From the NCBI RefSeq assembly GCF_001281045.1, contig NZ_CP012622.1:186001-250000 (forward strand): 64,000 nucleotides of DNA, written 5' to 3'. Below the pieces are notes generated by a model. The model did not search any database. It was not told where the DNA came from and was given only the letters and a program-made list of their open reading frames with translations. Positions 7,050 through 16,806 of the stretch are shown here, piece by piece (the stretch's first letter is position 1; every line of letters begins with the position of its first letter). Made by a program: the position numbers and the translations under genes. The DNA comes from Spiroplasma cantharicola. GTDB lineage: Bacteria > Bacillota_I > Bacilli_A > Mycoplasmatales > Mycoplasmataceae.

Positions 7050-7081
7050 AAAAACCGCTTTTTAATTGAGCGGTTTTTTTA
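7049..7081. terminator. Terminator after gpmI, also at the end of lipoprotein copy 1
   Basis: AAACCGCT/AGCGGTTT hairpin with seven to eight T residues following it on the plus strand. The minus-strand stop codon of lipoprotein copy 1 (7079-7081) lies in the T-run. The A-rich left flank lets the hairpin also end transcripts coming from the right. Confidence 0.85.
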
Positions 7082-7633
7082 TTTTGAAGTAGAAGCATTT
7101 GGGTTTTCTTGGATTCCTCAATCGTACATTTTTTTTATGTGCTCTTTTGTTTTATCATTAGAGAATTCATTTTTAAGAGCTAATGATAAACTATGATTGA
7201 ATATTTTTTTATCTTGGGCCCTTAATGTTTCTTTTACTCCGTTGTTTGTTACTAGTTCTTTCTTATAATTTTTATCAAATTGATATATTTTATATTCGTA
7301 TACTGACATTCAAAATATATATATTGTGCTCTTTTGAGATTCCATTGAATTGTGATTAAATTTAATTCTTTCAATATCTTGCTCATCTTTTTTTAGATTG
7401 TCTCAATCAATTTTTATTTTGTGCTCAGCTCATTCTTTGTATGCTTGAACTAAAAAATCTTCATTTTTGTCAACAGCTAGTTTGAAATTAGTTTCAATTT
7501 CTTCGATGTTTTTTGGTTGCTCTGTTGGTATAAAATAGTCTTCATCTTCAATTTCAGGTGTACAGCTAATTATGTTTAAACTTGGTATAGCTGTTAATGA
7601 AATAGAACAAAATGCTAATAATAATTTTTTCAT
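7079..7633 (-). CDS. Tandem lipoprotein, copy 1
   Basis: 184-residue predicted lipoprotein of unknown function, read as one frame with TGA as Trp. Signal peptide residues 1-23 end in LNIISC, with lipidated Cys24. The mature part opens with an acidic stretch (PEIEDEDYF) and then alternates helical acidic/basic segments. This copy differs by Cys9 in the signal peptide (Ser in the others), by ending in STSK rather than KV, and by a short block (7164-7183) that matches copies 4 and 5 while its flanks match copies 2 and 3, consistent with gene conversion. It shares the gpmI terminator. Confidence 0.85.
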
Positions 7634-7762: not shown

Positions 7763-8311
7763 TTAAACTTTTGCATTTGGGTTTTCTTGGATTCCTCAAT
7801 CGTACATTTTTTTTATGTGCTCTTTTGTTTTATCATTAGAGAATTCACTCTCAAGAGCTAATGATAAACTATAATTGAATATTTTTTTATCTTGGGCCCT
7901 TAATGTTTGTTTTATTCCGTTGTTTGTCACTAGTTCTTTCTTATAATTTTTATCAAATTGATATATTTTATATTCGCATACCGACATTCAAAATATATAT
8001 ATTGTGCTCTTTTGAGATTCCATTGAATTGTGATTAAATTTAATTCTTTCAATATCTTGCTCATCTTTTTTTAGATTGTCTCAATCAATTTTTATTTTGT
8101 GCTCAGCTCATTCTTTGTATGCTTGAACTAAAAAATCTTCATTTTTGTCAACAGCTAGTTTGAAATTAGTTTCAATTTCCTCGATGTTTTTTGGTTGTTC
8201 TGTTGGTATAAAATAGTCTTCATCTTCAATTTCAGGTGTACAGCTAATTATGTTTAAACTTGGTATAGCTGTTAATGAAATAGAAGAAAATGCTAATAAT
8301 AATTTTTTCAT
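7763..8311 (-). CDS. Tandem lipoprotein, copy 2
   Basis: 182-residue paralogue of copy 1 with the same signal peptide and lipobox. It is a type-A copy: the segment after residue 127 reads RAQDKKIFN followed by SLSLALESEF. Residue 125 is Gln here. The terminator hairpin found downstream of copies 3-5 is missing after this copy, so its transcript may read into copy 1. Confidence 0.85.
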
Positions 8312-8433
8312 AATTCACCTCTATCAAAATTTTACAATAATATTAAAATTTTTGTGAAATAAATTAAAATATGGTAACTTAAAAGTTTAAAAATTAATGG
8401 AGTGTAATATTATTAATATTTAATTTATATAAA

Positions 8434-8462
8434 AAAGTATCTAGATCAAATCTAGATACTTT
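8434..8462 (-). terminator. Terminator of lipoprotein copy 3
   Basis: Perfect 13-base inverted repeat (AAAGTATCTAGAT / ATCTAGATACTTT) with a CAA loop. Read on the minus strand it is followed by a T-run. Confidence 0.85.
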
Positions 8463-8480
8463 ATAAAGAAAATTATTTAA

Positions 8481-9029
8481 TTAAACTTTTGCATTTGGGT
8501 TTTCTTGGATTCCTCAATCGTACATTTTTTTTATGTGCTCTTTTGTTTTATCATTAGAGAATTCACTCTCAAGAGCTAATGATAAACTATGATTGAATAT
8601 TTTTTTATCTTGGGCCCTTAATGTTCGTTTTATTCCTTTGTTTGTCACTAGTTCTTTCTTATAATTTTTATCAAATTGATATATTTTATATTTGTATACT
8701 GACATTCAAAATATATATATTGTGCTCTTTTGAGATTCCATTGAATTGTGATTAAATTTAATTCTTTCAATATCTTGCTCATCTTTTTTTAGATTGTCTC
8801 AATCAATTTTTATTTTGTGTTCATCTCATTTTTTGTATGCTTGAACTAAAAAATCTTCATTTTTGTCAACAGCTAGTTTGAAATTAGTTTCAATTTCTTC
8901 GATGTTTTTTGGTTGCTCTGTTGGTATAAAATAGTCTTCATCTTCAATTTCAGGTGTACAGCTAATTATGTTTAAACTTGGTATAGCTGTTAATGAAATA
9001 GAAGAAAATGCTAATAATAATTTTTTCAT
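8481..9029 (-). CDS. Tandem lipoprotein, copy 3
   Basis: 182-residue type-A paralogue. Private changes are Lys67 and Asp69 (AYKKWDEH where the others have AYKEWAEH), Lys121 in place of Asn, and Arg125. It ends in PNAKV and is followed on the minus strand by the hairpin at 8434-8462. Confidence 0.85.
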
Positions 9030-9149
9030 AATTCACCTCTATCAAAATTTTACAATAATATTAAAATTTTTGTGAAATAAATTAAAATATGGTAACTTAA
9101 AAGTTTAAAAATTAATGGAGTGTAATATTATTAATATTTAATTTATAAA

Positions 9150-9178
9150 AAAGTATCTAGATCAAATCTAGATACTTT
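9150..9178 (-). terminator. Terminator of lipoprotein copy 4
   Basis: Same 13-base inverted repeat and CAA loop as at 8434-8462. The flank differs by a 2-base deletion, which accounts for the 716-base spacing. Confidence 0.85.
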
Positions 9179-9196
9179 ATAAAGAAAATTATTTAA

Positions 9197-9745
9197 TTAA
9201 ACTTTTGCATTTGGGTTTTCTTGGATTCCTCAATCGTACATTTTTTTTATGTGCTCTTTTGTTTTATCATTATGGAATTCATTTTTAAGAGCTAATTCCA
9301 AAAAGAACTTGAATGTTTCTTCATTTTCGGCCTTTAATGTTCGTTTTATTCCGTTGTTTGTCACTAGTTCTTTCTTATAATTTTTATCAAATTGATATAT
9401 TTTATATTGGTATACTCACATTCAAAATATATATATTTTACTTTTTTGAGTTTCTATTGAATTGTGATTAAATTTAATTCTTTCAATATCTTGCTCATCT
9501 TTTTTTAGATTGTCTCAATCAATTTTTATTTTGTGTTCAGCTCATTCTTTGTATGCTTGAACTAAAAAATCTTCATTTTTGTCAACAGCTAGTTTGAAAT
9601 TAGTTTCAATTTCTTCGATGTTTTTTGGTTGCTCAGTTGGTATAAAATAGTCTTCATCTTCAATTTCAGGTGTACAGCTAATTATGTTTAAACTTGGTAT
9701 AGCTGTTAATGAAATAGAAGAAAATGCTAATAATAATTTTTTCAT
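9197..9745 (-). CDS. Tandem lipoprotein, copy 4
   Basis: 182-residue type-B paralogue. Residues ~128-153 read KAENEETFKFFLELALKNEF instead of the type-A segment, and the preceding linker has SIETQKSK in place of SMESQKST. The codon after the internal Met is TGA (MWVYQYK), so a standard-code reading breaks the frame there. Residue 125 is Arg. Followed by the hairpin at 9150-9178. Confidence 0.84.
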
Positions 9746-9867
9746 AATTCACCTCTATCAAAATTTTACAATAATATTAAAATTTTTGTGAAATAAATTA
9801 AAATATGGTAACTTAAAAGTTTAAAAATTAATGGAGTGTAATATTATTAATATTTAATTTATATAAA

Positions 9868-9896
9868 AAAATATCTAGATCAAATCTAGATATTTT
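9868..9896 (-). terminator. Terminator of lipoprotein copy 5, with compensatory stem change
   Basis: Same hairpin, but the stem reads AAAATAT.../...ATATTTT. The G and its partner C have both changed, so pairing is kept. Confidence 0.87.
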
Positions 9897-9914: not shown

Positions 9915-10463
9915 TTAAACTTTTGCATTTGGGTTTTCTTGGATTCCTCAATCGTACATTTTTTTTATGTGCTCTTTTGTTTTATCATTATAGAATTCAT
10001 TTTTAAGAGCTAATTCCAAAAAGAACTTGAATGTTTCTTCATTTTCGGCCTTTAATGTGTCTTTTATTCCGTTGTTTGTCACTAGTTCTTTCTTATAATT
10101 TTTATCAAATTGATATATTTTATATTCGTATACTGACATTCAAAATATATATATTTTACTTTTTTGAGTTTCTATTGAATTGTGATTAAATTTAATTCTT
10201 TCAATATCTTGCTCATCTTTTTTTAGATTGTCTCAATCAATTTTTATTTTGTGTTCAGCTCATTCTTTGTATGCTTGAACTAAAAAATCTTCATTTTTGT
10301 CAACAGCTAGTTTGAAATTAGTTTCAATTTCTTCGATGTTTTTTGGTTGCTCTGTTGGTATAAAATAGTCTTCATCTTCAATTTCAGGTGTACAGCTAAT
10401 TATGTTTAAACTTGGTATAGCTGTTAATGAAATAGAAGAAAATGCTAATAATAATTTTTTCAT
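9915..10463 (-). CDS. Tandem lipoprotein, copy 5 (promoter-proximal end of array)
   Basis: 182-residue type-B paralogue very close to copy 4 but with Asp125 and NEFYND. Its upstream region keeps only the first ~35 bases of the shared leader before switching to unrelated sequence that leads divergently into the 939-aa gene at 10562. This copy therefore marks the edge of the duplicated unit. Followed by the hairpin at 9868-9896. Confidence 0.85.
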
Positions 10464-10561
10464 AATTCACCTCTATCAAAATTTTACAATAAAATTTAAA
10501 AAGTATATTGTATTTTTTAAATTTTTTAATATTATTTTCTTGAAAGGAAAAATAAAGTAAA

Positions 10562-13381
10562 ATGAGAAAAAAAGAAAGTAACATCAAAAAATTTGTTGAT
10601 AGAATATTTAATAAAAATAATAAAGCAAATTTTAAAAGAGTTTTTTTATTAGGTTCAATATTTGGGTTTGTTTCGTCTATAACGTTAGCTATATCTTTAC
10701 CAATAGTATTAAAATCCAAATTAGAGCAGCAAATTTATTTTAAATTTGATAATAACTATTTTTCTTCAAAAGAGGAGATTTATGAATATTCAAAATTAAA
10801 TGCAATTAATAATAATTATTCTTTTCAAAGTAATATATACATGTTTGATGATGAAATATTCAACACAAAAGATGAGTTAGATTTATATATTGAAAATAAA
10901 TTTCAATTAAACGAAATTAAAACTAAAAGAAATCCTAATGATTATCTTATTAATAACTCAGGAGAATTGTCTGGATTAGTTAAAACAAGTAGCAATGAAA
11001 GTATTCAAACAGTTTATAAAGGAAATAATGATTTGACATATCTTTCAAAAAATGATGCTTTAGAAACTTATACAAATAATTTTCAATTGAATTATGAAAT
11101 AGATGGTCAACATTATGACAACATTTTTAGTGCCAGAGAACATTATTTAAATGTCAAATTAAAAAATCTAGAGTCAAGTGAATCAAAAACAATGTGTTAT
11201 GAGCAAGGGGGAATGTGTCAAACACAAGAGCAAATTACTTCTTGATTAAGAAATAACATTTCAAAAGGTTTTGAATACCAAGGAAAAGACTTTTCAAATT
11301 TAAATTATCTTGAGTTCTTAGATGCTATGAAAGATTTAGATGAAGAAATAATTAATAGGAATATTCAGCCAGTTTTAAATGCAGATAAATCATCATATTG
11401 AGTAACACAACATAGTAAAAAAAGTTTAAGTTATTTTGTTGGTCCAAAATATTTTGAAAGTAATGAGAATGTATCTTCAATTGCAGAATTTAAACCTATT
11501 AAATCTTATGATATCAATGCATTAATGTTACCTATATGAGGGTGAGCCTTTGCAATAATTACTACTGTAGTATTAGATTCAAAAATAAAGGATCCAATTG
11601 GAAGTGATTATGAAATGATGAATTATTTAAATAACACTTTTGAAACTTTAAATTTAAATAAGGAATTTTTAAATGTATTTAATAGAGATTTTTACTCTAT
11701 AATATCTAAAAATTTAAAAGATGATTTATCATATGGTTTAGCTGAAATTGAAGATAATGATTTAAGTGATTTTTATAGATTATTAATATCTTTTAAAAGA
11801 TTTTTGGACTTGACAAAAATATATGATTTATCAATAAAACCAGAAGAATTAGAAAAAAATTTAAAACAAATTGTTGTTGAAATTTTAAACTCCCAAAAAG
11901 ACTTCATGAATAACTTTATTGATGTTAAAGATAATAAAGAAGGCGCAAATATATTATTAGATGATAGTATATCTTTTGATGATATTTACAGTCTATTTTT
12001 AAATACATCCAATTTTTTTAATGATGGAGGAACAAAAAAAATTTTATGAGATATAGCAGAAAAAATATTTAGGGGAGTTGATGCTGTAATGGAAAAAATA
12101 GATAAAATTTCAGGAGCAGTTAAACAAGTCAGTGAAAATATTAAGGACTCAGAAAAAACTAAAAATAAAAATGAAAGTGAATTAGAAAAAAATATGCAAA
12201 AAAATAAGGAGATGATAACTAATTCATTAGTTAATAATGAAAAAGAATTTATCAATGCAATGGGTTTAGACATTGAAGAATCCAATCTTAGATTTTCTCC
12301 TTTGCTTATAGTGTATATTGCTCAAGCAGTATCTGGGGTTTGAAATTTAGGACAAATGTTTAGCTTTATAAGTTTAAAAACATATGAAGCTAAATTAGAT
12401 AGTAATCAATCTTTATATTATTTCAAACCAACATTTAAATTACCATTATTAAATATTTCTTTTGGTAAAGTAAAAGATCAATCTATTTATACTTTAAATG
12501 ATGCTCCCTTAAAATATTTTTCTCCATCAATAGATGGAAAGGAAATAAAAGAATTATATGAGTTTGATGGTAAGTATTATAAGGAAAAAAATAAAGCAAT
12601 TGATGACTTAAAATATTCAATTTACAAAAAGCCAGAAAATTACTTAAAAACAAAGCAATTACTAACTTCAGTTATTAGTAAAGATAATAACTATATGCTT
12701 AATCTTCCAAGTATTTGTAATTCAAACTCATCAACACAAGGCTGCTTGCAAAGTTATGAATATGAAAAAAAACTTGCAGAAGAAAAAGAAAAGTATATTT
12801 CAAACTTATTTAATAAATTTTATAAAGATAATGGAAAAGAGTATTATCTTGATGGTTTTGGTGGCGGATATGAATCAAAACAAATTGCAATTCAGGAATT
12901 GCAAAGAAAGGCTGATGACTCTTCAAATTACAAAGAAATTTATACTTATGAAATGAATAATAATAAAGTATTTAAAGAAACTAAAAAAGAAATTCAAGAA
13001 TTTATTAGAAATAATCAGATAATAGAATATAAATCAATTATTAATACTGATTTAATTGAAACTAGTTATTATTATAATTTAAAAGAAAATAATGGTTATG
13101 ATTTTAAAATTTATGAAATGAATTTTTATGGACAAAAGAAATATTTTAGATCTTATTTAGAAGCAATTAATTATTTAGATAATAAAATTAACTATCAAGT
13201 TTATGAACTTGATAGAAAACAAACAACTTATACATATAAAGGAATTGAATTTCTAGATGAAAAAAATTTTAAACAATGAATAGATAAACAGATAGAAATT
13301 GTATTTGAAAAAAATAATATAGACGGAAGGGGTAGTGAACAAAATGCTAAAACATATTTTAACAGTTTGTGCTATAACTAA
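10562..13381 (+). CDS. Large repeat-bearing membrane protein (939 aa)
   Basis: Unrecognised. A basic N-terminus is followed by a membrane helix (about residues 27-47). Then comes a stretch to ~310 with several copies of a degenerate ~20-residue motif: Tyr-x-Phe/Met-Asp/Asn-Gly/Asn, an aromatic, Ser/Thr-x-x-Glu, then a short helix (e.g. YEIDGQHYDNIFSAREHY). Second and third hydrophobic segments lie near 320-342 and 577-603. Between them is a hydrophilic, partly coiled-coil domain. The C-terminal third has more copies of the motif (YEFDGKYYKEKNKAIDDL). Two Cys pairs occur, C212/C219 and C719/C728. A weak GAAAGG-type ribosome site lies upstream. Its last 38 bases overlap the start of the next gene, so the two are coupled. 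Surface exposure of both repeat regions is inferred from topology. Confidence 0.85.
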
Positions 13382-15467
13382 TTTTTCAACAGCCTCAGTT
13401 ACTAGCATCACAAATTTTCAAAATACAACTATGTTAGATAAAGAGCAGTTGACAGATTTTTTAAGAAGAGATATTGAAGAAAATAAAGTATATATAGGAA
13501 ATCAAATTTATAGTGAATATGATAATAAAATATTTACAAGTCAAGAATCTTTAAATGAGTATATCCTATCTAATTCAATAGTTGAGAGTGAATTTACCTC
13601 TTCAAATCCAAGCAAAATAATTAAAGATTATGAACACATGACTTTAGATGAGAATAAGATTTATGATATTGACATGGATAAATTTTCACCAATTTATAGA
13701 GATGCTTTTGGAAATATTGCTTATACAAGTGATGAGGCTTTGGAAACTTATACTCATGGAGGTCTTGTAAGGCAAAAATATAGTTATGATGAAGAAAATT
13801 GATTTGATTCTCCTGAAGAAGCTAAAATTAATCAAAAAAATAATATGAAAATTAACAAATCTCTTTATTATCAATATAATAATAAATACTATAACGCTTT
13901 TAATATAAAAGATATTAATAATCTTTTAAGTAATTTTGAAGAAGGTTATTTTGTAAATAAATCAAAAAGCTTAGAGGGAAACCATTTATTACAACCAATT
14001 AATGAATATGGAGATAAAGAAATTTTATATAAAAAAATGAAAAGAGAGTTAAAAGAAAATTTCTTAGATAGTTACTATTATAAAGTATCAAAGATGGACT
14101 ACGTCAATTCTCTTCAATTTGGAATAAAAAATAAAAGTGAATTAAGAATTGCTTTTAAAGGAGAGAGTCAAAGTATTTACTATAGAGGACAATATCCATC
14201 AATAATTTTTGCAAATAAATATGAATCAAAAACTGAAATGGTTAATGATTTTAAAGACAAATCAAAATGATCAACAGGTCATGAAGGTTCATGAACTCTT
14301 GGAAGAAATTACTGGTATAGAGATTTTGAATTAAAAAAACCTAATGATAATAAAGTATATAAAGCAACTGTTAAATTAGTTCCTAAATTTAGCCATGGTT
14401 TAGGTAAAAACAATCCAAGCTTTGATGATTATAATTATGAAGATAAAACAGTTTCTAAAATAAGTACTTATTATGATTCAAGTCAAAGACAATTAGTAGA
14501 ATCAATAGGTAATTTAAATCAAAGATATTCAATTCAAGAATCAACTAGAGAAGACAAAGCTTTTATGTATGATGCTTGATTTGAAGAATATTTTCAAAAG
14601 AATATTACAAACTTCAAGGGTAATGAGAATAAAGGTGTAGATTATTCTGATATTTTAAATGAATATTATATAAAAAATGTAGATGGTAGTGTTTATAAAG
14701 ATCTGATGTATGATATAAACTATGCAAAAGGAACTAGTTTCTCTTTAATTCAAAGCTATTATGATTGATTAATTGTAAAAAATGAGTTATTAAAAAAACC
14801 TATAATAATTGATGGAGAAAAAAAATATCAATTAAAGCCAGATTTTTATGCAACAAGAGAACAATTAGATAATTTTTTACAGTTGCAAGGAAAATTTAAT
14901 ACAGTTTTGAAATACTCTTATGGGGCAACACCAGATTTATCTAGTCCAGATGGAAAACTACTTGCTGATTCATATGAAGAAGCAAGAGAAAAGCAATTTG
15001 TGCAAAGTAGTTTAAGTCTTAAAAAAAGATATATAGCTTATGATGTTTTTGGTAAATCAATTGAAAGTGGAAATTCAGAACAAGAAGCTATTAGAGCTTT
15101 AAAACGTAATATTGCACTACAATCAAAAATGACACATAAGAAAGAAATCGATTCATGAAATAATAATATTAAAAAATCTTATGATTCAATTATTTCAGAT
15201 GGAAGATATTTAGTTTATAAATTAAAAGACTTAAAAACTAATTCCTATATTTACTATTCCTCTCAGGAAATGGCGTTAAAGGCAGCTCTTTCAAATGCTA
15301 GAATCAATGGAGATGTAAATAAAATGGCAATTGAAAAATATATGTATACATATAGCAACTCTTTAATTGGTGAAGAAATTAGTGTTATTTTTTACAATAA
15401 TGATATTCAATCAGCAATTGACAAAATTTTATTAAAAACTAATTCTAAAAAAAGAATATTAAATTAA
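13344..15467 (+). CDS. Large repeat-bearing exported protein (707 aa)
   Basis: Unrecognised. Short hydrophobic N-terminus (residues 3-22) resembling a signal peptide, without a convincing lipobox. The body carries the same degenerate Tyr/Asp-Gly/aromatic/helix motif as the upstream 939-aa protein, and one stretch is clearly shared: SDEALETYT here and KNDALETYT there. Other copies are YYQYNNKYYNAF near residue 175 and YDVFGKSIESGNSEQEAI near 575. ATG 13344 is preferred over GTG 13335 because GGAAGGGG (13325-13332) sits 11 bases before the ATG but only 2 before the GTG. It overlaps the upstream frame by 38 bases. Followed by a long inverted repeat terminator. Confidence 0.85.
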
Positions 15468-15481
15468 TTTTAATTTAACAT

Positions 15482-15540
15482 AATTCTCTAACTATAACAT
15501 TTTATTTTTAAATATTATGTATAGTTAGAGAATTTTTTAT
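15482..15540. terminator. Long-stem bidirectional terminator
   Basis: 15-base perfect arms (15482-15496 and 15520-15534, AATTCTCTAACTATA and its complement) with a 23-base A/T loop and T-run. It lies between the convergent 707-aa gene and the minus-strand membrane protein gene. Confidence 0.75.
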
Positions 15541-15630
15541 ATTCAAATATTTCAATAAAAATCAAAGGTTATTATCCATAAAAAATTATTTTATAAAAAC
15601 ATTATTTATAATTAATAAAATATATTTGGG

Positions 15631-16806
15631 TTATTTTTTTAATAAAACTTCCTTATTCTCCGAAAATCTTTCAGCTATTATTGGTATTAAAATAACTATA
15701 GGCAAAATATATATATGAATTAAAAAAAATCCAGAAAAAAAGGAAGAAACAAATTCAATATTCTTATTTTCATATATTTTACATAATCTAAATATTGCAA
15801 ATAAAATCATTGTAATATTTAATATTAGTGCAAATAAATAAACAATTATATACATTATATGATAGAGAGTATTTTCTTTATTATTAAAATTATAATTTGA
15901 AAATATTGTTAATTTATAAATTGCAACAGATATAAAAATTAGGCCTAACATAATTTTTATATAAGCAATTAATTTTTCTTCTGTATTTAGTTCTATAATT
16001 TGATTATTTTTAGAGGTATTTTTTTCCTTTAAACAAAGGTTATTAATTCATATTAATAAGTATTGGCAAAGTGTTATTAAAAGTAAACATACCATAGTTC
16101 CAGCCACAATTAGTTCTTTACCATTGACTACAAAAGGATTAAAGAAAAAATAGGGAGTAGAAAGAACATAAATTGGCAAGTCTAATACTCATTCATGATT
16201 TTCTTCTATTCAACTAATTTCACTATTTGATGCCTGTTTTATAAAATGTTCAACATCCAAATAATTCATTATTAGCATTCTAATTAAAACAAAAAATAAA
16301 TAAAATATTGGATAGATTCAACCAATTAAAAGATTTTTCTTATATCAATTGGAAATATCAATTTTCTCTTTTTTCACTATAAAAAAATAATAGATCATAG
16401 CTATTAAATAAGTTACTAAATGAGTAGTAACTGTAATAAATCATTTTATAAAAGAATTATATTCATTAGCTCATAAAACTAATGGCAGTTCTTTTGAACC
16501 AGATAATGCAGATCAAAAAAGTACCATTGTTAAAGTAAAGTAGCTTAAAAAATTAATTCAAGCTACTTTACCAGGTTTTCACAAGCCTCATTTTCCATTC
16601 AAAGCAACAAATAAAAAGAATATAAAAAACATTCAATTTGTTTGTGTAGTTCAAAAAGAAATATCAGCAAATATTTTATTTAATCATCCAAAAAGGTGAT
16701 ATCTAGGAGCTGGATCAATTTGAGCCATGGTTGCAGAAAGCATTAAGAAAGCAAAAAAATAAATAAAAAATATATATCAAGCTATTATTTTAAGTCTATT
16801 TTTCAT
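15631..16806 (-). CDS. Polytopic membrane protein, unknown function
   Basis: 391 residues with about nine hydrophobic segments spread over the whole length and many Trp residues encoded by TGA. The second segment contains FWTTQTNWMFF, followed by a Lys-Trp-rich loop. This arrangement is reminiscent of FAR-17a/Pr6Pr or DUF1600-type membrane proteins of mollicutes, but I would not assign a family from this alone. Start ATG 16804-16806 has AAAGGTAGAG upstream. It lies 59 bases downstream of the flavoprotein gene on the same strand, so co-transcription is likely. No transporter signature was seen. Confidence 0.8.

What the first reader, a model, noticed from the sequence alone, without database searches (positions are those of the whole stretch)
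10562..15467. Two coupled giant proteins sharing a degenerate strand-turn-helix repeat
Seen: the 939-aa and 707-aa proteins overlap by 38 bases, share the DALETYT/EALETYT block, and both contain many copies of a pattern of Tyr-x-Phe/Tyr, Asp/Asn-Gly/Asn, aromatic, Ser/Thr, x-x-Glu-Ala, short helix. I know no named family with this pattern. Inference: an exported surface complex, next to a lipoprotein array, possibly for adhesion.
Basis: partly seen in the sequence, partly recalled or inferred. Interest (0 to 1): 0.6.

Follow-up and report, generated by a model that had tools for sequence, protein, structure and literature searches.

The report
Coupled surface-protein pair with lipoprotein array
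Two overlapping genes in a Spiroplasma-type bacterium make distantly related secreted proteins built from the same small repeated fold, which travel with arrays of small lipoproteins and most likely form an accessory, changeable surface complex of a family not found in the libraries searched.

Summary
Two ORFs (939 and 707 aa, code 4) overlap by 38 bases, share the DALETYT block, and carry many degenerate strand-turn-strand-helix units, far above chance. The two proteins (A and B) are ancient paralogues, related at both ends (independently in a divergent class). No Pfam, NCBIfam or PDB family matches. The pair is an accessory module of one mollicute family: A in 25 of 60 genomes, B in 16 of 395 class genomes, all in that family. 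A and B nearly always abut (23 of 24 pairs) and diverge in parallel (r = 0.96). Lipoprotein genes are enriched beside it (67 of 190 ORFs against 19 of 343); the window-type lipoprotein family occurs in 11 of 14 genomes with a window-type A and 0 of 46 without. In the slot beside iPGM, relatives show the module intact, decayed or absent. Class-3 A proteins carry lipoboxes, so A lies outside the cell. Best reading: a membrane-anchored A-B surface heteromer with exchangeable lipoproteins, probably for host attachment. Surface location is well supported; adhesion is untested. It is not a sarpin-type (ScARP) adhesin.

The parts
10562..13381 (+). Gene A: 939-aa membrane-anchored extracellular protein
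   Evidence: homologues
10655..10711 (+). A residues 32-50: single N-terminal hydrophobic anchor (replaced by a lipobox in class-3 homologues)
10730..11353 (+). A residues 57-264: N-terminal repeat region with the DALETYT unit
11579..12361 (+). A residues 340-600: A-specific central region with no counterpart in B and only weakly hydrophobic stretches
12539..13309 (+). A residues 660-916: C-terminal repeat region, homologous to the B C-terminus
13344..15467 (+). Gene B: 707-aa secreted paralogue of A, overlapping A by 38 bases (mechanical start GTG 13335, 710 aa)
13325..13332 (+). GGAAGGGG, probable ribosome-binding site of B inside the end of A
   Evidence: by eye
13497..13943 (+). B residues 55-203: N-terminal repeat region (YRDAFGN, EALETYT, YSYDxxxWFDSPEEA, YYNAFN), the most conserved part of B
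   Evidence: model of residues 48-175
14808..15422 (+). B residues 492-696: C-terminal repeat region, homologous to A 660-908
9915..10463 (-). Small lipoprotein gene, copy 1 of 5, divergent from A
9197..9745 (-). Small lipoprotein gene, copy 2
8481..9029 (-). Small lipoprotein gene, copy 3
7763..8311 (-). Small lipoprotein gene, copy 4
7079..7633 (-). Small lipoprotein gene, copy 5, next to iPGM

Best explanation
A and B are the two diverged halves of a duplicated surface protein, made as one translationally coupled unit. A is held to the membrane by its N-terminal anchor (a lipid in class 3) and lies outside. B is secreted and stays with A. Their strand-turn-strand-helix units form an extended scaffold, and the conserved B N-terminal units form the core of an A-B heteromer. 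Small lipoproteins from the neighbouring, easily duplicated array join the complex as its changeable part. The complex most likely mediates attachment to arthropod-host surfaces, as an accessory trait gained, multiplied and lost between species. Shown here: paralogy, coupling, parallel divergence, linkage to lipoproteins, gain and decay. Inferred: surface position of the window's own proteins, heteromer, lipoprotein as partner, adhesion.
For: A and B are homologous at the N-terminus (E 8e-8) and the C-terminus (E 1.6e-4), and independently in class 3 (E 3.9e-10 over 206 columns). Pairs abut in 23 of 24 cases, with A and B distances correlating at r 0.96 and 0 of 1000 permutations as high. Export: a hydrophobic N-terminus in nearly all A proteins, a signal-peptide-like N-terminus in B, and a lipobox in 6 of 8 class-3 A proteins by rule, in a seventh behind a later start by eye. 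Lipoprotein linkage. Accessory behaviour: A in 25 of 60 family genomes, several copies per genome and relics, and the iPGM slot intact, relic or empty. A and B are under purifying selection (pN/pS 0.17 each), while the lipoproteins are looser (0.40-0.64).
Against: No interaction, localisation or binding data. No confident structure. No homology to a known adhesin. Lipoprotein linkage is incomplete: 3 of 14 genomes with class-1 A lack the family and 5 of 32 loci have no flagged lipoprotein within 3 kb. Genomes are not independent samples, and parallel divergence is also expected of any two linked genes inherited together. The lipoproteins show no pN/pS above 1.
Confidence: 0.45

Rival explanations
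1. The module is a nutrient-capture or export apparatus: the lipoproteins bind substrates, A-B is a surface scaffold, and the polytopic membrane protein of classes 2 and 3 is the channel.
For: Class-2 pairs have a 467-504-aa polytopic protein directly after B in 6 of 6 loci; class-3 loci have a 5+1-TM protein with a large outside loop in 9 of the 10 class-3 loci by my reading of the call tables.
Against: No such protein sits beside the class-1 pairs, the window's included. The membrane proteins match no transporter family. Tandem near-identical lipoproteins are unusual for solute-binding proteins.
Confidence: 0.15
2. The module works in conflict with other cells or phages: A-B is the acting or recognising part and the multiplied lipoproteins are surface immunity or receptor-masking proteins.
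For: Tandem amplification (up to 9 copies in L068), patchy presence and decay, lipoproteins diversified in patches.
Against: No catalytic or pore motif was recognised; A and B are themselves conserved rather than polymorphic at the C-terminus; no mobile-element or defence family was found in the pair (only Pfam and NCBIfam were searched; PADLOC was not run).
Confidence: 0.12
3. A-B is a structural surface coat with no specific ligand, and the lipoproteins are unrelated antigenic-variation genes that merely hitch-hike.
For: Lipoprotein families differ between classes; lipoproteins are common in these genomes (19 of 343 background ORFs).
Against: The class-1 lipoprotein family follows class-1 A: 11 of 14 against 0 of 46 genomes, 45 of 50 copies within 6 kb of an A or B gene or relic. 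Even relics of B keep a lipoprotein neighbour.
Confidence: 0.2

Closest known systems
ScARP/SARP1 ('sarpin') adhesins of Spiroplasma
   Same: Secreted, repeat-bearing surface proteins of Spiroplasma; a multi-gene, fast-changing set (PMC2386487, PMC3485318, PMC8208695, passages read).
   Different: Sarpin repeats are 39-42 aa. In a plasmid-borne S. poulsonii adhesin of this build they match Pfam beta-propeller repeats. The A/B profiles and unit model find nothing in it. It has a C-terminal membrane anchor and charged tail, which A and B lack.
Two-gene adhesin operons of mycoplasmas: P140/P110 (M. genitalium) and P97/P102 (M. hyopneumoniae) (recalled, not tested)
   Same: Adjacent genes for two large, distantly related surface proteins acting together; several copies per genome in P97/P102.
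   Different: No family hit to any such protein here; the repeat unit, the lipoprotein arrays and the host group differ.
MIB-MIP pairs of mycoplasmas (recalled)
   Same: Paired surface genes in several divergent copies.
   Different: No protease family hit; hosts here are probably arthropods without immunoglobulins (inference).

Membership tests
ScARP/SARP1 sarpin adhesins | Repeats homologous to sarpin repeats | tested here: not met
   Unit HMM and A1/A2 HMMs at full sensitivity: no hit to the S. poulsonii sHy plasmid adhesin; hhalign E 0.37 or worse. Only this one member was tested.
ScARP/SARP1 sarpin adhesins | C-terminal transmembrane helix and short charged tail | tested here: not met
   No hydrophobic segment near the C-terminus of A or B in the homologues scanned (18 A, 16 B).
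ScARP/SARP1 sarpin adhesins | Cleaved N-terminal signal peptide | tested here: inconclusive
   B begins with a signal-peptide-like stretch; A with an uncleaved-looking anchor or, in class 3, a lipobox. Hydropathy and a pattern rule only.
P140/P110 or P97/P102 adhesin pairs | Sequence or fold homology to these proteins | not tested
   No member was compared directly; Pfam and NCBIfam scans gave no hit above cut-off.
P140/P110 or P97/P102 adhesin pairs | Two adjacent co-expressed genes for paralogous large surface proteins | tested here: inconclusive
   Adjacency, overlap and A-B homology are met; co-expression was not measured. This is an analogy of layout, not of descent.
Mollicute lipoproteins (NCBIfam LP_plasma) | Plasma-type lipoprotein signal peptide on the array proteins | tested here: inconclusive
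   Neighbours of class-2 and class-3 pairs pass NF038029 (L077 protein 25.6 bits, L086 protein 31 bits, cut-off 24); the window copy scores 19.5, just below. The invariant Cys at position 24 is present in 16 of 16 aligned.

The most novel reading that the evidence does not exclude
A, B, the small lipoproteins and (in two classes) a polytopic protein form a hitherto undescribed multi-part surface machine: an A-B scaffold of a new repeat fold that assembles or displays exchangeable lipoprotein cargo, with the cargo array amplified and renewed independently of the conserved scaffold.
Probability: 0.25. Interest if true: 0.7.

Novelty: new variant of a known kind. Interest (0 to 1): 0.48.

Why it matters
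Spiroplasma surface biology rests on a few characterised proteins (spiralin, ScARPs, ALP). Here is a separate family found in 25 of 60 genomes of the bacterial family searched, with fixed partners, three divergent classes and clear gain and loss. It gives testable candidates for what sets host range and tissue attachment in these symbionts and pathogens, and a possibly new repeat fold.

Tried and rejected
Sarpin/ScARP homology: considered first, rejected. PDB and virus structure searches with the 128-residue model: nothing significant. A second look at Foldseek's own list had a best Z of 2.1 (8f3k, rmsd 6.5, 79 aligned). The model is weak, so this shows nothing about fold novelty.

Plasmid and phage collections with A, and plasmids with B: no match at E up to 1. 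The plasmid collection does hold Spiroplasma plasmids (5 records matched a transposase). Viral contigs with the B profile: nothing. A single-protein genome-contig scan found nothing; the profile scan found one named locus, S. poulsonii MSRO_BK.

Whole-B AlphaFold2 with 3 rows: mean pLDDT 35.6, not used. hhalign self-mode printed nothing, so my own window comparison was used. Promoter scan of 10400-15700: fewer sites than shuffles (37 against 45.9), no evidence. Positive selection on the lipoproteins: not found, pN/pS 0.40-0.64. The first lipoprotein-profile search matched signal peptides of most lipoproteins (44 of 60 genomes at E 1e-3), so E 1e-15 was used afterwards.

Papers: searches (listings seen) found no description of this pair; passages were read. 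That is no proof that none exists: annotation names of these genes were not known to me.

Full report
OBSERVATION. Under genetic code 4 the window holds ORF A (10562-13381, 939 aa) and ORF B (13335 or 13344 to 15467, 710 or 707 aa), both on the + strand. Five near-identical lipoprotein genes stand upstream on the - strand, in units of 678-718 bp.

REPEATS. Profiles of A and B were compared window by window without gaps. 123 window pairs scored above 8 (1.7 expected from 20 column shuffles) and 30 above 10 (0 expected). The units follow Tyr-x-Tyr/Phe, a turn with Asp/Asn/Gly, an aromatic, Ser/Thr, then Glu-Ala or similar and a short helix. In the ORFs of the 33 loci searched (32 fetched loci and the window), the 30 proteins that pass E 0.05 with a unit HMM are all members of A or B; the HMM was built from A and B, so this shows only that nothing else nearby carries the unit. 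The only usable structure model (B 48-175, 3-row alignment) shows recurring strand-(strand)-helix units at mean pLDDT 60.5. Its other four models reached 38-48, and the whole-B model was useless.

A AND B ARE PARALOGUES. Profile-profile comparison aligns B 55-163 with A 88-191 (E 8e-8) and B 492-696 with A 660-908 (E 1.6e-4) (first seen). A divergent class shows the same kinship independently (E 3.9e-10, 206 columns). A differs by a central region of about 260 residues without a counterpart in B.

DISTRIBUTION. Single-sequence searches found A in 17 of 60 and B in 16 of 60 related genomes. Profile searches found A in 25 of 60 genomes of the window's family (6 of 12 genera) and B in 16 of 395 genomes of the class, all in that family; a class-3 B profile matched 11 of 296, again all in that family. 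The only named relative is Spiroplasma poulsonii MSRO_BK, where A is cut down and B is split over two ORFs, amid transposase ORFs. Three classes can be drawn: class 1 (window type), class 2 and class 3. They are related over their full length (B: E 2e-66; A: E 1e-59). Some genomes hold several pairs.

COUPLING. I took 24 pairs from the loci, leaving out fragmentary loci; six of the 24 still have a shortened A or B ORF. 23 of 24 have a gap of -113 to +22 bases between the A stop and the first possible B start; the exception (378, L071) has a shortened B. A-A and B-B distances correlate at r = 0.96 (0 of 1000 permutations as high). This is expected of linked genes as well as of partners, so it supports a unit, not a proof of contact.

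LOCATION OF THE PRODUCTS. In the 18 A proteins scanned by hydropathy, all but the N-terminally shortened L085 ORF have a hydrophobic N-terminus; internal segments are weak and not constant. Of 8 class-3 A proteins 6 begin with a lipobox by my rule, a seventh (L086, first copy) has one behind a later start by eye, and L085 begins within the protein. A therefore most likely lies outside, held by its N-terminus. B begins with a signal-peptide-like stretch in most of the 16 scanned and has no C-terminal anchor.

LIPOPROTEINS. With a simple lipobox rule, 67 of 190 ORFs within 3 kb of a pair are lipoproteins, against 19 of 343 in 20 arbitrary 20-kb regions of the same genomes (odds ratio 9.3). Of 33 loci one (L081) had no A or B by the quick search and was dropped; 27 of the remaining 32 have at least one flagged lipoprotein within 3 kb, and L064, L073, L078, L083 and L085 have none. 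The rule also flags a few larger proteins (602-626 aa in L062, a membrane protein in L079, A paralogues in L082 and L086), and tandem copies are not independent. The class-1 lipoprotein family (A7), counted at E up to 1e-15, occurs in 11 of 14 genomes with a class-1 A and in 0 of 46 without (from the tables). 45 of its 50 copies lie within 6 kb of an A or B gene or relic. One further genome (G011) has a weaker match at 1e-13, below the cut. G026 and G034 have class-1 pairs beside another lipoprotein (359 aa) instead. Genomes are related, so the p-values are only guides.

MEMBRANE PROTEINS. Six of 6 class-2 loci have a polytopic protein of 467-504 aa directly after B (one of the six only a distant relative, E 1.5e-13). 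Most class-3 loci have a roughly 600-aa protein of about 5+1 membrane segments from two related families (E 7e-10). Neither has a Pfam or NCBIfam match in the members scanned. Class 1 has none beside it.

GAIN AND LOSS. In the window the module sits between iPGM and a 391-aa membrane protein gene. Of the 19 other same-genus genomes, 5 (G001, G004, G006, G008, G017) have these two genes 33-45 bases apart and nothing between. Two (G003, G009) keep a lipoprotein relic and a C-terminal piece of B in the same slot and orientation, with A gone. Two (G013, G019) have an unexplained stretch. Ten do not have the 391-aa gene there. G006 carries its module elsewhere in the same neighbourhood. In the window's own genome three further lipoprotein genes each follow a C-terminal scrap of B. 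So the cassette is accessory, decays with A lost first, and lipoproteins multiply together with the tail of B.

SELECTION. Between two near relatives A and B each have pN/pS 0.17. Lipoprotein arrays have 0.40-0.64, with differences bunched in the middle or last third. The most conserved stretches of B are residues 91-210 and 451-630.

KNOWN FAMILIES. Pfam, NCBIfam and PDB sequence searches gave nothing above cut-off for A, B or their homologues. Sarpin adhesins were the obvious candidate. A plasmid gene of S. poulsonii sHy annotated 'adhesin' (L152) has 39-aa repeats, a C-terminal membrane helix and a charged tail. Its repeats match the Pfam beta-propeller repeat SBBP (E 1.9e-5), and neither the A/B profiles nor the unit model find it. 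A/B is thus not of that kind. By layout, not descent, the nearest analogues I know are the two-gene adhesin operons P140/P110 and P97/P102 (recalled).

MECHANISM. The most likely reading is an A-B surface heteromer with lipoproteins as the changeable third part, serving attachment to arthropod hosts. Surface position about 0.85; stable A-B complex about 0.7; lipoprotein as physical partner about 0.5; adhesion about 0.45. Rivals are transport, conflict with other cells, and passive coat.

VERDICT. A real, conserved and apparently undescribed module of moderate interest; novelty lies in the family and its fixed company, not in the general kind (paired surface proteins of mollicutes).

Noticed in passing
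L152:12513-14444 (S. poulsonii sHy plasmid): The 39-aa 'sarpin'-type repeats of a Spiroplasma adhesin match the Pfam beta-propeller repeat SBBP (E 1.9e-5), so sarpin domains may be small beta-propellers.
   Followed up: partly
L173 (G000:C1:470501-490500): Three lipoprotein genes in the window's genome each follow a C-terminal scrap of B (residues about 608-698), as if lipoproteins were duplicated together with the tail of B.
   Followed up: partly
L093:12296-13981 (S. poulsonii MSRO_BK): Next to the decayed A-B pair stands a 561-aa ORF with an HEMGH motif and a hydrophobic C-terminus, without a Pfam match; perhaps a surface metalloprotease.
   Followed up: no
L083 (G030:C1:1033001-1049000): A class-3 pair sits inside a cluster of ORFs of one family that look like MreB by eye (no family search was run on them).
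   Followed up: no
window 8403-9896: Perfect palindromes (AAAGTATCTAGATCAAATCTAGATACTTT type) separate lipoprotein copies, likely terminators, so each copy may be its own transcription unit.
   Followed up: no
L073, L075-L080, L082, L085-L088: Polytopic membrane protein families next to class-2 and class-3 pairs; the members scanned (L073, L076, L079, L080, L085) have no Pfam or NCBIfam match.
   Followed up: partly
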